From Ignisphaera aggregans (GTDB lineage: Archaea; Thermoproteota; Thermoprotei_A; Sulfolobales; Ignisphaeraceae): DNA of 43,757 nt. Shown here piece by piece: positions 13,489-36,839 of this stretch. The notes beneath the pieces are model-generated. The model worked only from the letters and a program-made list of their open reading frames with translations, was not told the origin of the DNA and made no database searches. The stretch is from NCBI GenBank assembly GCA_015662595.1, contig DQTV01000037.1, positions 1 to 43,757 on the forward strand, written 5' to 3'. The stretch's first letter is position 1, and every line of letters starts with the position of its first letter. A program made the position numbers and the translations under genes.

Positions 13489-14538
13489 CTACAACACTCC
13501 GAGGAACTCTCTAAGCACTTTCTTAACTCTATTAACTACAATGCGCACACCTCTATGAGGTTCAACACGGTATTCGGTATCTATCTGTGGCTGTATATAC
13601 CCCCTCACAAAGGCTGGTAAGCCTTCACGAAGACCTACAGTATACCCTCCCTCTAACACCGTAAGCGTACCCAGAAACCTTTTAGCCATGAGAGCAAGAG
13701 AGCTTGCAGCAAAGGTAAAGAACTTTGATGTTACGCTCATAGATGCTAGACCGTCGTCGAGGTAGGCATCGAGACCTAGAGAAAGCATTATCATTCTAGG
13801 CTTTATGGTAAATACCAGGGGCTCTACGACTTCTTTCCACACGTAGATGTAGTCGTCATCACCTGAGTAATGGGGGAGGGGGATGTTCACCTTCGTTCCC
13901 CGAGCTTCATTACCACCAATATCCTCAACATCACCAGTTCCAGGGTATATACCGTGTTCATGAATATCTACATGAATAACGTTAGCATCGTTCCAAAATA
14001 TTTCCTGTGTTCCGTTACCATGATGCACATCAATGTCTATTATTACGATTGGTCTAAGTTTCATAACTTCTTCAGCATATTTAGCTGCTATAGCTATGTT
14101 GTTAAATATACAGAAGCCTAAGGTCGGAGCTCCTAGAGCTCTACCATACCTACCCGCATGATGACCTGGAGGTCTTAGTAAAGATAGGAATAGAGCGCTG
14201 CCCTTCTCGAGCAGGAGACGGACACCTTGAATAGCGGCTCCACATGCGAGCAACGCTACATCGAAGGTGTGAGGAGAAACGTACGTGTCTAAATCTATGT
14301 ATCCACCACCTCGCTTAGACATTTCACGGACGAGCTCAACATAATCACTATCGTGAACTGCAAGTACATTATCTAAGTCAGCTCTTTCAGGGACTATTAC
14401 ATCTGCCTTATCCCACATACCTGAATTTCTCAGGGCTTCTATAGCTATCTCTAAACGTAATGGATTCTCTGGGTGTGTAGATGCGATCGGAGGTCTGTGC
14501 TTCTTATGATCATCGCTATACGCTATGAAGAGCTGCAT
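13489..14538 (-). CDS. Histone deacetylase/acetylpolyamine amidohydrolase family protein
   Basis: LLRPPGHHAG, GFCIFNNIAIAAKYA, VIIDIDVHHGNGTQEIFW, SLGLDAYLDDGL, EGGY. Confidence 0.95.
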   Translation of the reverse strand: MQLFIAYSDDHKKHRPPIASTHPENPLRLEIAIEALRNSGMWDKADVIVPERADLDNVLAVHDSDYVELVREMSKRGGGYIDLDTYVSPHTFDVALLACGAAIQGVRLLLEKGSALFLSLLRPPGHHAGRYGRALGAPTLGFCIFNNIAIAAKYAEEVMKLRPIVIIDIDVHHGNGTQEIFWNDANVIHVDIHEHGIYPGTGDVEDIGGNEARGTKVNIPLPHYSGDDDYIYVWKEVVEPLVFTIKPRMIMLSLGLDAYLDDGLASMSVTSKFFTFAASSLALMAKRFLGTLTVLEGGYTVGLREGLPAFVRGYIQPQIDTEYRVEPHRGVRIVVNRVKKVLREFLGVL

Positions 14539-14609
14539 ACATCGTCATACCCCGAACTGCAGCCTCACCACACGTTATATAGCTTAGTAAGTAACTAGAT
14601 GTAACAGCC

Positions 14610-15611
14610 ATGAGTATCCGCCTACATTTAAATGAATCACCGTATCCTCCCACTCCTCGCGTGGGAGAGTATTTAGCGAGATACATTGGTGTTTTGAATA
14701 GGTACGAGAGTGTAGAGCTCAAAGAGGAGTTGCTACGAGAGCTCGCAAATTACGTAGGTATAGACCGCGACTACATATCGCTTTACCCTGGTAGCAGTGC
14801 TGCTATAATAGCGTTGCTTAAGTATGTTAAACGCAATAATCTACGCTTCCTAACGACATTTCCGGGGTTCCACGGAATTAATGAATTTGCTGAGCTTGAG
14901 AACGTGACCGTGTACTACCATGCTCTCACACCTAAGAGCTTTGAGCTAGACCTCGATAGACTCCTGAGGGAGGTAGATAAGCAGACTGTTGTATACATAG
15001 CCAATCCCAACAACCCTACATCAAACATACTGCTACACGATGAGGACTCGGTTAAGAGGTTATGCGAAAAAGCCTCGCTAGTTGTTATTGATGAGGCGTA
15101 TTACGAGTTTTCGGGTATCACATTCACAAAGCTATTAAGATGCAGTCTATGCGAGAACTTGGTCATTATACGCACATTCTCTAAAGCATTTGCATTAGCA
15201 GGCGCACGCATAGGTTACGTAATCTCTTCACCTAAACTTCTGTCCGAATTAGACCGTTGCAGACCACTCTTCGACATTGCTATACCTTCGATGGCTGCCG
15301 CATTGGCTGCTCTTAGAGATAGAGACTACATGTTTAAGCTCGTTAACGTTATCAAGTATCTACGCGATAAACTTAGATCTGAAGTTGAAAACCTCGGATT
15401 GTATGTGCTTCCCAGCGCTACTAACTTCCTCTTTATCGAATTGCCACTACCAGGTTACGTAGTAGCTGAGAAACTCCGCTCCATGAATATCCTAATCAAG
15501 ACGTATAGCGATCCCGGCATAGAGAACTATATCAGGGTTAGCGTAGGTAGTGAGGAGGAGAATAAACTGTTTGTGGAATCTCTCAAAGAAGTTCTGGCAA
15601 GTAGTAAATGA
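14610..15611 (+). CDS. Class I/II aminotransferase, histidinol-phosphate aminotransferase-like
   Basis: NESPYPPTPRV, YIANPNNPTSNIL, VIDEAYYEF, RTFSKAFALAGARIGY. Confidence 0.9.
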   Translation: MSIRLHLNESPYPPTPRVGEYLARYIGVLNRYESVELKEELLRELANYVGIDRDYISLYPGSSAAIIALLKYVKRNNLRFLTTFPGFHGINEFAELENVTVYYHALTPKSFELDLDRLLREVDKQTVVYIANPNNPTSNILLHDEDSVKRLCEKASLVVIDEAYYEFSGITFTKLLRCSLCENLVIIRTFSKAFALAGARIGYVISSPKLLSELDRCRPLFDIAIPSMAAALAALRDRDYMFKLVNVIKYLRDKLRSEVENLGLYVLPSATNFLFIELPLPGYVVAEKLRSMNILIKTYSDPGIENYIRVSVGSEEENKLFVESLKEVLASSK

Positions 15612-15658
15612 TGACACTACCGCGTCTGAATGGTGATGAATGCCGTGGCCACTGATCA
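15605..15658 (+). ncRNA. C/D-box sRNA whose C box contains the stop codon of the preceding gene
   Basis: C ATGATGA(15608-15614) - cactaccgcgt - D' CTGA - atg - C' GTGATGA(15633-15639) - atgccgtggcca - D CTGA(15652-15655). Confidence 0.8.
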
Positions 15659-16361: not shown

Positions 16362-16416
16362 CGCATGATGAGTCCGGCAGGATCGGATTGATGAAGATAA
16401 TTCCATGGTCTGATCA
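16362..16416 (+). ncRNA. Tentative C/D-box sRNA
   Basis: C ATGATGA(16365-16371) - gtccggcaggat - D'-like CGGA - C'-like TTGATGA - 15 nt - D CTGA(16410-16413); TATA-like cttaaaagc lies upstream; D'/C' spacing is irregular. Confidence 0.35.
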
Positions 16417-16880
16417 GCTGGTTGATCTCTCTTCATCCCTTAGCTAGGTACGTGATCACCTCCCTCATCATCTACTACAGATCTCCACATCACAGCTACT
16501 AAATCTATAATATCGTTATGTCCTGGCCAAGGATGTTAATGCTGATGTATATATCGATATGAGAAAACCGATACCGATACTTAAAGCCTAAGGATCCCTC
16601 CCTACAGATGATTATACCATGCTCCAAAGTAGAGATGGAGCTGCTATGTAATGCAGAGAGTGCAAAGGTGTAGATAAAGACTTCTAGAGCCATAGGGTGT
16701 ATAAATTTAGATTTCTGAATATGGATGTGGTAGAAGATGTATTCAAGTGCATAGCAGGAGTTGCAAAGCTCTAAATGCTGAAGGTTCATCTTCATCTCCT
16801 TAGCATAGTGTAGTAAGCAATGCTCAACAATGGGCTTTCTAAGATCAGGTTAAGTGAGTTTAGATAGCTATAGCAATTCA

Positions 16881-17036: not shown

Positions 17037-18257
17037 TTATTCCATAGATGCAGATCTTTCACTACGTTTATAGAGATACAGTTTCTGCGGGTTTGTTAAA
17101 CCCACAACCAGCTTTACGTTGTCTTGTTGTGCGTATGCCTGCAATAGAATGTGGAACCTCCTTATCGCCGACGCCTCGATCCTAACGAACCTGTCCACGA
17201 GGTCTATGGGTGTCGGGACAGCGTTGTGCGACGTGTCCGAGATGGCGTAGGAGACGACCTCCTCAACCCTCGAGCTCGGGTATATATCGAGGCGGATGGC
17301 CTGGGGGTAGACGAGGTCCTGCGAAGGCATGTAGTAGACCACAGCCGTGTCCCTCATATAGCTACACAGGCGCTGCGGTAGCTCGCCCAGCGCTCCGCGA
17401 CAGCTCTCCTCAAGTATGTTCACAAGCCTCTTCTGGCCCCGTAGCCTGAGGCTCTCTATCAGGAGGGTGTAGAAGTCTCCCACAACCGTGTACTCACCGG
17501 GCCTTAGAACGAAGCTCATGAGGGTCTTGTCGTTGCTTCTGCGGAGAGCCTCCGCAGCTCCGAGCAGTCCCGCGTCCACGAGCTTTCTGTATAGGAACCT
17601 GCTGCTGACGCGCTTAACGACACCAACAACGGGCTTCTCCAGGTCGTGCGCATCGTCCAGCAGGTTTATCAGTGCCGCTGATACGTAGTGAGCGAGCTCC
17701 CTCCCATAGGCCTCCCTACTGTGTCGAAGCGGGTCGGCGAGGCCCCTGGGGTCGTAGAACTGTGGAAGCGTTGCTCCGGGGAAGAGGGGTCCGTCGATGA
17801 GGACCAGGTCGACGAAGCTGTGGTTGATAAGCTCCCTCCTGGCGGTGACGAACTCGAGCACCTTGGCCTTGAGCTCGACGCTTAGGCTGAACCTCTCCTC
17901 GTGCTCCCCCACGCTGCGTCGTAGAGATGCGTACTTAATGCCGTAGAACCCAGGGTGCTGAGGTACGGCAACTATGTAGCCCGTGACGATTATCGCCATG
18001 AGGCCCGAGACCAGCTCTAGCGGGGGCTTGGACCACGTACTGTCTACAGCTAGAACAGCCACGTAGTCATCTCCTCGCTCAGCGCGCCGAATGCTGAAGA
18101 GACTGCGTAGTCTGTCGCGGCTCTGCACTATGGGCTTGACCACGTTCCTGTCTAGCCAGTCAAGAGCTTTCTTAGCGAGACGCGAGAGCATTAGGGTTAG
18201 CTCTGGGTTCTCCTCCTCTAGCTCGATATCCGCAGAGGGTAGCCACTCCTCATACAA
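17037..18257 (-). CDS. NurA-domain nuclease (paired with HerA)
   Basis: VLAVDSTWSKPPLELVSG and DLVLIDGPLFP acidic motifs; overlaps the HerA-like ORF end by 8 nt. Confidence 0.8.
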   Translation of the reverse strand: MYEEWLPSADIELEEENPELTLMLSRLAKKALDWLDRNVVKPIVQSRDRLRSLFSIRRAERGDDYVAVLAVDSTWSKPPLELVSGLMAIIVTGYIVAVPQHPGFYGIKYASLRRSVGEHEERFSLSVELKAKVLEFVTARRELINHSFVDLVLIDGPLFPGATLPQFYDPRGLADPLRHSREAYGRELAHYVSAALINLLDDAHDLEKPVVGVVKRVSSRFLYRKLVDAGLLGAAEALRRSNDKTLMSFVLRPGEYTVVGDFYTLLIESLRLRGQKRLVNILEESCRGALGELPQRLCSYMRDTAVVYYMPSQDLVYPQAIRLDIYPSSRVEEVVSYAISDTSHNAVPTPIDLVDRFVRIEASAIRRFHILLQAYAQQDNVKLVVGLTNPQKLYLYKRSERSASME

Positions 18258-19818
18258 CGTCTCTCACCCTGATTAGCACTGGCTTGCGGAGGGGGTTGGC
18301 AAGCCCCGTGACGAAGAACTCGCGACGACCAAGCATCGGGAGCACGTACTCCATGTACTGAGCGCCCTCAATCCAGTTCCTAAGCTCCTGATAGTCGCTG
18401 TGCGTCTGGAGTCTGGAGAAGAACACTGTGTTTATGTTGCCCCTCACCTCGGGAGCTATATCCACTATCCTCTGGCTCGCTAGAACTATACCGAAAGCCC
18501 ACTTCCTACCCTCACGAGCTGTCCTCGCGATCTCGGTAACGGAGGGCTTGCAGTGAACGCATGCATAGTTATGCGCCTCATCCACCACCACAACCAGGTT
18601 AGCTGGCCGGCGCTCCGACTGAACAACGCTCCAAACACTCCTCAGAAACTGGTAGACTATGTATCGCTTCGCTTCGTACTCTAGCTCCGTAGAGAGGTCG
18701 ACAATGACAAGCCTCGACTCTCCGGAGAGAAGAGCGTTGATGATGTTCGTGATCAGAACGCTTCGGGGCGCCAGGTACCGGTCGAAGAACTCCCTCCCCA
18801 CGCGGACCGCTAGAAGGGACTTGTACTTCACTATCGTGTCCTCCCTAGCGTTTATCTCACTCAAATACCTCGGTAGAGCCTGTGAGAAGGAGTCGTAGCT
18901 CCATGAAAATGCACGCTGCTCACACAGCTTAAAGTACTCGTTGACCACCATCTCGAGGTCCATATCTGTCAGCGGCTCATGGTATCGCTTTCCGCGGTTC
19001 CCAGCTCTATCAATAACTTCTGGACGCTTTCTAACTACTTCATCGTATACGTATCTAACGATTGCATAGAATGTCTTATCCTCGTGATATCCCGAGAGCC
19101 CCATCTTCTCGTTTAAGAGGCTCGCTATGATTGATGGATCTAGCACTATCCTAGACGCGTCGATCACCGTAGGCTCGACGCCTACCGACTCCCACCGCCT
19201 GGTGTCGGCGTAGTCGACGCCCGTATGGTCGAAGATGAGTATGCTGAAGCTGGTCTTGGTTAAGAGCTCCTCGACAAGGGCCTTCACGAGCCTCGACTTT
19301 CCCGTGCCGGTGGCCCCCAGCACAGCTACGTGGTACACGACCGCCTGTGGATCGAGGTGTATACTCATACCTGAGAACTTGTGTACGCCGACATATAGCC
19401 CCCTAGGGAGCTTCAGTATCTTAGAGAGTCGCTCACCATCTAGTACCGCGTATACATGGCTTCCCGGTCTCGGGATGGCGAAGCTGAGCTCCAGCCCTCC
19501 CTCACGGCTTATCTCACCGAAGATCTCTACGTAGGTACGCATCATCGGAGCCGAGTAGTGCCTACTATGCTCTGGGCTGAAGGTTGTGGGTAGAGCTGAC
19601 CCATCAACAGCTATATCGAGCTTCGTAGACCCCTTTATCACGCCCAGAAACCTCCTGTCCTCGATATAGTCATCGATTATGACTAGCATCTCATCGCGTA
19701 CCTCTGAAATCAGCTCGCGAGAAACTCGTATGGGTGCGAAAGAAGCTCTAGCCCCAGATGTTACGATGCCTATCAGGACTCCAAGATCCTGAGGCTTCCA
19801 GCTCCATGCTAAGTGCAA
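18250..19818 (-). CDS. HerA-like DNA translocase ATPase
   Basis: Walker A VLGATGTGKSRLV, Walker B LVVVVDEAHNYA, ARTAREGRKWAFGIVLASQR; N-terminal HAS-barrel-like region. Confidence 0.9.
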   Translation of the reverse strand: MHLAWSWKPQDLGVLIGIVTSGARASFAPIRVSRELISEVRDEMLVIIDDYIEDRRFLGVIKGSTKLDIAVDGSALPTTFSPEHSRHYSAPMMRTYVEIFGEISREGGLELSFAIPRPGSHVYAVLDGERLSKILKLPRGLYVGVHKFSGMSIHLDPQAVVYHVAVLGATGTGKSRLVKALVEELLTKTSFSILIFDHTGVDYADTRRWESVGVEPTVIDASRIVLDPSIIASLLNEKMGLSGYHEDKTFYAIVRYVYDEVVRKRPEVIDRAGNRGKRYHEPLTDMDLEMVVNEYFKLCEQRAFSWSYDSFSQALPRYLSEINAREDTIVKYKSLLAVRVGREFFDRYLAPRSVLITNIINALLSGESRLVIVDLSTELEYEAKRYIVYQFLRSVWSVVQSERRPANLVVVVDEAHNYACVHCKPSVTEIARTAREGRKWAFGIVLASQRIVDIAPEVRGNINTVFFSRLQTHSDYQELRNWIEGAQYMEYVLPMLGRREFFVTGLANPLRKPVLIRVRDVV

Positions 19819-19901
19819 GGTAGTGCATACCCGTACAGCTTAGGATTGAGAAGCCGTTTATATGGCGTGTGTGGGAGGTAACTAAAAGTGCTAAACTGAG
19901 G

Positions 19902-21150: not shown

Positions 21151-21241
21151 TGGTCCCGCCGGGGGGATTCGAACCCCCGACCACCCGGTGTCTACGCCCG
21201 CCCCACTACAGCCGGGCGCTCTGCCGCTGAGCTACGGCGGG
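21151..21241 (-). tRNA. tRNA-Tyr (GTA) with an intron of about 16 nt after position 37; CCA encoded
   Basis: Acceptor CCCGCCG/CGGCGGG (C1-G72), A73-CCA, D arm GCTCAGCGGCAGAGC, anticodon stem CCCGG/CCGGG with CTGTAG-[TGGGGCGGGCGTAGAC]-A loop, T arm GGGGGTTCGAATCCCCC. Confidence 0.85.
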
Positions 21242-35807: not shown

Positions 35808-36839
35808 TTACTCCAGTATCTCACGACCACTAACTAATTGTACCCCTAAGCGATACATCGACTCTCTAATGGTACGAGAGTCAATCTTACTAAGCTTATG
35901 CGATAGCTCTAGGGGTATCGGGTAACCGGCCGGAGCTATCTTAGCAAGCCTAAGTGCTATATCCTCAATTGTATCGAGGATCTGTGTACTAAAGGATGAG
36001 AGTTGAAATGCTGGGCCTCCGCTCACTAACCTCATGTACGTTACTATCAATGTATCGAGCTCATAAGCTCTTAACTTACTTACTTCTACCTTCAATATCC
36101 GTGACAGTTCATCGGATTTCAATACTATCGGAACGCTAAACCCTGATTCTGAGTATGGATAGAGTTTAAAGAGTCTCGCAAGTTCAAGTACATAGAGATC
36201 AGGGTAATCTTTAATTCCGTAGAAACTTGCACCAGAGTTCTTAGCTATGAAGAGTGTTATGGTATTGCGATTGAGAAACGCAAGCGTTTGGAGTCTCATC
36301 TCCACAAGTTCGCCTACTGAATAACATCCATACGTGGCCGAACATATTCGCACATTCCTTACTTTCTTAAACCTATCCATAGTGAAAGATATGGCAGACC
36401 CATCAATTAGTACAAATGGCTTCTCACTCGCGTACCTAACAGCTTGCTTAAGTAGGTTTAGCTCTACGCATTGCGCATAGAGAGCCAACACCTTCTTTGG
36501 CGCTATTTTTCTCATACCAGCTACGTCATACATTCCAGGAAACTCAATGGTACCAACATCACCTATTCTAATGAATTTAGTATCATCACCGTGTGCTAGC
36601 GCTACACCCTGAACTACATATATGAGGCCTAGCCTAGTCTCTACAATAGTAAAGCTGGAGTCCGCAGCCACAACCTTACACGTATCACTATGCTTCTTAA
36701 CGTCTATCACGGTCCATCTCAGCTTGTTAACTACAATGCTCTTCAGCTCATCAAATCGATGTCTAGTATCGTCATAGAATTGCTTGGCAAACTGTAGAAG
36801 CGCTTTCTCAAGCTCAGGAAATATAGGCACAGCCGACAC
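35808..36839 (-). CDS. NurA-domain protein (no adjacent HerA)
   Basis: VVAADSSFTIVETRLGLIYVVQGVAL and FVLIDGSAI acidic motifs. Confidence 0.7.
   Translation of the reverse strand: MSAVPIFPELEKALLQFAKQFYDDTRHRFDELKSIVVNKLRWTVIDVKKHSDTCKVVAADSSFTIVETRLGLIYVVQGVALAHGDDTKFIRIGDVGTIEFPGMYDVAGMRKIAPKKVLALYAQCVELNLLKQAVRYASEKPFVLIDGSAISFTMDRFKKVRNVRICSATYGCYSVGELVEMRLQTLAFLNRNTITLFIAKNSGASFYGIKDYPDLYVLELARLFKLYPYSESGFSVPIVLKSDELSRILKVEVSKLRAYELDTLIVTYMRLVSGGPAFQLSSFSTQILDTIEDIALRLAKIAPAGYPIPLELSHKLSKIDSRTIRESMYRLGVQLVSGREILE

What the first reader, a model, noticed from the sequence alone, without database searches (positions are those of the whole stretch)
17037..19818. Standalone NurA-HerA cassette with distinct GC content
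The overlapping NurA and HerA genes are visibly GC-richer than their surroundings (hand count: 35/60 in line 17161 versus 27/60 in line 22141), and antisense strands carry long spurious ORFs typical of high GC. No Mre11/Rad50 genes are adjacent, unlike the canonical archaeal end-resection operon. GC drops in patches (about 18960-19150 and the 3' end of NurA). This fits a horizontally acquired or defence-type NurA-HerA pair.
Basis: partly seen in the sequence, partly recalled or inferred. Interest (0 to 1): 0.7.

Follow-up and report, generated by a model that had tools for sequence, protein, structure and literature searches.

The report
Accessory archaeal HerA–NurA pair, GC mosaic
A two-gene DNA pump and DNA-cutting enzyme, present in about a quarter of the hot-spring archaea searched, sits here as a spare copy beside the normal repair set, and its interior has the base composition of a foreign, GC-rich version while at least one end looks native.

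Summary
In detail: a NurA/HerA pair (17037-19818, minus strand) is a sharp GC island (55.3% against 43.3±1.3% for same-size stretches) with no Mre11/Rad50 nearby. It is an intact, divergent, accessory HerA–NurA family. The genome also has a HerA–Mre11–Rad50 operon, a second NurA–HerA pair and two other NurA genes. The family runs HerA→NurA, occurs in 32 of 122 near-complete class genomes, is almost always single-copy, and was not found in phage or viral collections. Neighbours checked are mostly metabolic. It appears to match the unnamed, non-CRISPR second nurA–herA pair reported in Pyrobaculum/Vulcanisaeta (PMC3396285). 'Acquired cassette' is only partly right. The pair branches where vertical descent in the Ignisphaera family predicts (AU p 0.33 and 0.52), and a g2 relative has it near the same genes. 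The GC-rich tract ends inside NurA: the last ~37 NurA codons are native-like under every model, the first ~84 HerA codons under some. The simplest reading is homologous overwriting of a resident pair by a GC-rich allele from an unsampled relative. Defence remains possible but untested: patchiness and one in-place deletion show dispensability, not a target. The most likely activity is ATP-driven dsDNA degradation.

The parts
18250..19818 (-). herA-like gene, 522 aa, TTG start; divergent HerA/FtsK-type translocase with intact Walker A (GATGTGKS), Walker B (VVDEAHN) and conserved EGRKW
   Evidence: Pfam PF01935 64.2 bits; K174, D413, E414, R438 invariant in A1 and A5; predicted fold matches S. 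solfataricus HerA 4d2i, E 6.9e-26
17037..18257 (-). nurA-like gene, 406 aa, TTG start; RNase H-fold nuclease with conserved acidic residues D72, E135, D155 and a C-terminal extension with a TNPQK motif, absent from the genome's other NurAs
   Evidence: Pfam PF09376 34.7 bits; residues invariant; alignment of the extension; predicted fold matches S. solfataricus NurA 2ygk, E 5.7e-10
17153..19563 (-). GC-rich tract inside the two genes (GC3 about 0.7); its HerA-side edge is uncertain
   Evidence: two-state segmentation of GC3 and of amino-acid-corrected codon usage
17042..17150 (-). native-like codon usage at the NurA 3' end (about 37 codons, GC3 0.36)
   Evidence: called native under all settings, 8.7-12.7 nats
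19566..19815 (-). native-like codon usage at the HerA 5' end (about 84 codons, GC3 0.48); depends on model
   Evidence: called native by the GC3 model and by the stronger donor model, not by the weaker one
19005..19092 (-). internal 30-codon native-like patch in HerA (GC3 0.27), in a poorly conserved stretch; depends on model
19855..19869 (-). possible archaeal TATA element (ATATAAAC) about 40 nt upstream of the herA start
   Evidence: read from the sequence; inference

Best explanation
This is an accessory HerA-NurA DNA translocase-nuclease of a distinct archaeal family, long resident in this lineage (Ignisphaera family). Most likely a HerA hexamer uses ATP to feed double-stranded DNA into a NurA dimer that degrades it. 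Shown here: gene identity, predicted folds, conserved catalytic residues, pairing, separateness from the core repair copies, patchy single-copy distribution, and one in-place deletion in a relative. Inferred: complex formation, the activity itself, and that its role is clearing foreign or damaged DNA rather than core end resection. The GC island is best explained by homologous recombination that overwrote the interior of the resident gene pair with an allele from an unsampled GC-rich close relative, leaving native sequence at the NurA 3' end and probably at the HerA 5' end.
For: Fold and motif matches. Core copies elsewhere. Separate family in the HerA tree. HerA adjacent to NurA in nearly all Sulfolobales loci. 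Present in 32 of 122 near-complete class genomes, almost always single-copy. Genus g5 genomes carry clade A, clade B or neither. G013 keeps only the last 85 aa of NurA between the flanking genes that bracket the pair in G010, G011 and G015. Tree compatible with vertical descent (AU p 0.33, 0.52), and the G001 locus shares neighbours. Codon-usage heterogeneity inside both genes (p<0.0005) against 3 of 134 control genes at p<0.01, with a native-like NurA end. Both-strand dsDNA degradation is published for T. kodakarensis HerA-NurA (PMC12977600).
Against: No donor was found: best DNA matches in 229 class genomes are 69-72% over fragments. The HerA-side junction and the internal patch depend on model settings. 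Donor and native segments cannot be told apart by their relatives. A metagenome assembly chimera cannot be excluded without reads. Catalytic activity and complex formation are not tested.
Confidence: 0.6

Rival explanations
1. Dedicated antiviral system: the pair destroys invading linear dsDNA, like SIR2-HerA and HerA-DUF4297 in bacteria, and its sequence turnover reflects conflict with viruses.
For: Patchy distribution, alternative clades within one genus, loss in place, and clade-A members in other families (G103, an Acidilobaceae MAG) nested beside genus g5. The predicted HerA fold resembles defence HerA structures and NurA matches the nuclease of TdpAB. Published suggestion that archaeal HerA-NurA degrades viral DNA (PMC12977600).
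Against: Neighbours checked are mostly metabolic genes. A CRISPR-like array was found in only two Sulfolobales loci of the family (L053, L180). No defence partner was found. Core HerA-NurA fits the same folds. Vertical inheritance within Pyrobaculum is reported for each of its pairs (PMC3396285).
Confidence: 0.3
2. Whole-cassette horizontal acquisition: both genes were inserted from a distant GC-rich archaeon.
For: Extreme GC3. Members of the family have moved between lineages elsewhere (G103).
Against: Tree position near genus g2, neighbours shared with G001, GC junction inside NurA rather than at its end, no strong flanking repeats and no tRNA at the edges.
Confidence: 0.12
3. Vertical inheritance with unusual selection on codons, no recombination.
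For: Phylogeny and synteny are compatible with vertical descent.
Against: Only one other sampled ORF reaches this GC3. A native-like end within NurA is hard to explain by gene-wide selection. Relatives' pairs mostly follow their own locus GC.
Confidence: 0.15
4. Assembly chimera: a co-occurring GC-rich species' alleles were stitched into this contig.
For: The genome is a fragmented assembly (129 contigs, 80.6% complete); the mosaic has internal junctions.
Against: Both genes are intact and overlap in the right frames. The rest of the contig is syntenic with G001/G005. No relative shares long exact sequence.
Confidence: 0.1

Closest known systems
Second (non-CRISPR) nurA-herA paralog pair of Pyrobaculum/Vulcanisaeta (PAE2154/PAE2155; Vdis_1272/Vdis_1306), Bernick et al. 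2012, PMC3396285
   Same: The family member in Pyrobaculum sp. WP30 lies beside a NurA; in V. distributa JCM 11216 the family HerA is apart from its likely NurA by about 38 kb, as that paper's locus numbers imply. No function is assigned in that paper.
   Different: Identification is by arrangement and distance; the PAE/Vdis protein sequences themselves were not compared. In the window the pair overlaps and has a GC mosaic.
Canonical archaeal HerA-Mre11-Rad50-NurA end-processing set (S. solfataricus 4d2i, 2ygk)
   Same: Same predicted folds, motor motifs and catalytic residues.
   Different: About 17% and 11% identity in structure alignment; no Mre11/Rad50 linkage; gene order HerA then NurA (the own-genome canonical-type pair is NurA then HerA); NurA C-terminal extension; absent from most genomes.
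CRISPR-associated nurA-csm6-herA cluster (PMC3396285)
   Same: Accessory, non-core HerA-NurA pair.
   Different: No csm6 and no CRISPR array here. The V. distributa pair taken to be the CRISPR-associated one scores only 21.7 bits with this family's HerA profile.
SIR2-HerA and HerA-DUF4297 defence systems
   Same: HerA motor fold.
   Different: Partner here is NurA, not SIR2 or DUF4297.
TdpAB (PDB 8wfd)
   Same: HerA-like motor plus NurA-like nuclease; both predicted folds match it.
   Different: Weaker match than to canonical HerA/NurA; no DNA-modification gene recognised beside the window's pair.

Membership tests
NurA nucleases (PF09376) | Profile match above the curated cut-off | tested here: met
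   34.7 bits, cut-off 21
NurA nucleases (PF09376) | RNase H-type fold with acidic catalytic residues | tested here: met
   Best fold match 2ygk; D72, E135, D155 invariant in an alignment with the genome's other NurAs and part of 2ygk
NurA nucleases (PF09376) | DNA nuclease activity | not testable with these tools
   needs purified protein
HerA/FtsK translocases (PF01935) | Profile match, Walker A and Walker B | tested here: met
   64.2 bits, cut-off 23.2; motifs invariant
HerA/FtsK translocases (PF01935) | Hexamer, NurA binding | not testable with these tools
   complex not predicted here
Core HerA of Thermoproteota (NCBIfam NF040937) | Equivalog score of at least 800 | tested here: not met
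   50.4 bits; but the own-genome C87 (394) and C92 (277) copies also miss the cut-off
Core end-resection operon | Linkage to mre11 and rad50 | tested here: not met
   those genes are on C92 with another HerA
CRISPR-associated nurA-csm6-herA | csm6 between the genes, CRISPR array nearby | tested here: not met
   genes overlap directly; no array found in the window
Second nurA-herA pair of Thermoproteales (PAE2154/2155 type) | Orthology to those genes | tested here: inconclusive
   Pyrobaculum and Vulcanisaeta members found with matching arrangement; named sequences not compared
SIR2-HerA / HerA-DUF4297 defence | SIR2 or DUF4297 partner gene | tested here: not met
   partner is NurA
TdpAB | DNA phosphorothioation gene partner | tested here: inconclusive
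   none recognised among adjacent genes; genome-wide search not done

The most novel reading that the evidence does not exclude
A resident, dispensable HerA-NurA antiviral degradation system of hyperthermophilic archaea that diversifies by allelic exchange within the genes, independent of CRISPR.
Probability: 0.2. Interest if true: 0.65.

Novelty: new member of a known kind. Interest (0 to 1): 0.4.

Why it matters
Whether archaeal HerA–NurA does end resection or destroys foreign DNA is disputed (PMC12977600), and the core genes are essential in S. islandicus, which blocks genetics. An accessory pair absent from most near-complete relatives, and found deleted in place in one, is a version that can be knocked out. 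The intragenic mosaic would also be an example of homologous replacement between strongly GC-diverged alleles, if reads confirm it.

Tried and rejected
Viral, phage and plasmid searches: no family member; plasmid hits are partial, distant DUF87-type proteins. PADLOC: mostly generic HerA models, with the core HerAs scoring higher. Neighbourhood guilt by association: mostly metabolic genes, no recurring partner apart from lineage-specific synteny. CRISPR linkage: arrays in two Sulfolobales loci (L053, L180) and one Thermoproteaceae MAG (L220), so rejected as general. Donor search by DNA: no close match. NurA tree hint that the window pairs with G005: support 82/89, not significant. Mre11 as prevalence control: single-sequence search too insensitive outside the family, so used only inside it. 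Flanking direct repeats: only short imperfect matches of the kind expected by chance. The Iyer 2004 HerA-superfamily paper was not held.

Full report
Observation. The window carries HerA-like (18250-19818) and NurA-like (17037-18257) genes on the minus strand, overlapping by 8 nt. The pair is a sharp composition island: 55.3% GC against 43.3% (sd 1.3) for same-size stretches elsewhere, with GC3 0.64 and 0.71 against 0.41 (sd 0.03) for other window genes. In 210 genes sampled from the same genome the pair ranks 3rd and 1st in GC3.

Not the core copies. The genome (129 contigs, 80.6% complete) also holds HerA–Mre11–Rad50 on C92, a NurA–HerA pair on C87, a NurA on C27, a lone NurA at window 35808-36839, and HerA-like proteins on C31 and C110. 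In a HerA tree the window protein groups with 40 relatives, apart from all own-genome paralogs by long branches.

The family. The order here is HerA then NurA; the C87 pair runs NurA then HerA. In six loci of family f7 (Pyrodictium relatives) NurA is instead on the opposite strand, convergent with HerA. A strict profile search of the class found the family in 35 of 127 genomes, 32 of 122 near-complete, almost always one copy. A public genome scan extended it to Pyrodictium, Pyrolobus, Caldivirga, Vulcanisaeta, Pyrobaculum, Thermoproteus and Njordarchaeota. Phage and viral collections held none, and plasmids only distant DUF87-type proteins. Both predicted structures are confident (mean pLDDT about 91) and match S. 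solfataricus NurA and HerA best. Catalytic residues are invariant. The NurA has a C-terminal extension with a TNPQK-like motif (41 of 56 relatives) and 44 of 74 HerAs carry a CxxC-like motif after Walker B.

Link to literature. Bernick et al. (PMC3396285) described three nurA–herA pairs in Pyrobaculum, one CRISPR-associated with csm6. In V. distributa the family HerA is about 38 kb from a NurA, and a separate collocated pair scores only 21.7 bits. This fits the paper's unnamed non-CRISPR pair, so the family was probably seen before but not studied. The sequences were not compared directly.

History. Core genes TrpRS and Hel308 put the window sister to (G006,(G001,G005)). The HerA+NurA tree is compatible with that: grouping window, G001 and G005 is not rejected (p 0.33). 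G001 has the pair near DUF763 and a CobQ-like gene, as in the window. In four genus g5 genomes the pair sits between two other conserved genes, near TrpRS in three of them. G013 lacks it but retains the last 85 aa of NurA exactly there. So loss in place is shown once. Transfer is also likely: G103 of family f5 and an Acidilobaceae MAG nest beside genus g5, and some g5 genomes hold the distant clade B. The name Ignisphaera family is inferred from public records of the same loci.

Mosaic. Along the pair GC3 is not uniform. With amino-acid-corrected codon usage, the last 37 NurA codons are native-like under every setting. The first 84 HerA codons are native-like under the stronger donor model at both switch rates, and a 30-codon internal patch under that model at one switch rate. 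A simpler GC3 model gives similar segments. Both genes are individually heterogeneous (p<0.0005) against 3 of 134 control genes at p<0.01; relatives' pairs show little or weak heterogeneity. A GC-rich tract that ends inside a gene with homologous sequence on both sides points to homologous replacement. No donor is held. The patch is a poorly conserved stretch and the NurA end is short, which weakens them as independent evidence.

Mechanism. By homology, HerA pumps dsDNA into NurA, which degrades it. T. kodakarensis HerA–NurA degrades both strands, and an antiviral role was proposed (PMC12977600). Because core copies exist, this pair is likely accessory. Defence is plausible but has no positive sign here: metabolic neighbours, generic PADLOC hits and sparse CRISPR adjacency.

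Verdict. Real and mildly unusual. The protein family is a known kind without an assigned function; the new points are its distribution, its in-place loss, and the intragenic GC mosaic.

Noticed in passing
L012:1790-7386 (own genome contig C27): Apparent operon of a KAP-type NTPase (615 aa), a large 892-aa protein with a weak TrmB-like C-terminal match, and a NurA (350 aa), followed by a further ORF at the contig end: an unusual NurA context.
   Followed up: partly
window 35808-36839 (-): A lone NurA gene near TrpRS and Hel308; the same neighbourhood occurs in G001 and G005 (33-37% identity), so it looks like a resident gene of this lineage.
   Followed up: partly
L263:4563-4820: Remnant of 85 C-terminal NurA codons in G013 where relatives carry the full pair.
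   Followed up: yes
L053:9272-10340: CRISPR array (17 repeats) starting about 39 bp upstream of the family HerA in G075, with a second array of what looks like the same repeat, inverted, at 14052-15119.
   Followed up: no
L072, L075, L076, L079, L080, L083: In six loci of family f7 NurA lies on the opposite strand, convergent with HerA, and HerA follows a conserved methyltransferase gene block.
   Followed up: no
window 15604-15658 (+) and 16412-16475 (-): Sub-threshold matches to archaeal C/D box sRNA families in the gap beside the pair.
   Followed up: no
L011:820-3263: The second NurA-HerA pair of the genome also has mildly raised GC3 (0.51-0.52).
   Followed up: no
L130:2579-3562: The only other sampled ORF with GC3 above 0.6 in this genome (0.65).
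   Followed up: no
window 21151-21241 (-): ARAGORN calls an odd tRNA with a two-base anticodon, possibly an intron-containing tRNA.
   Followed up: no
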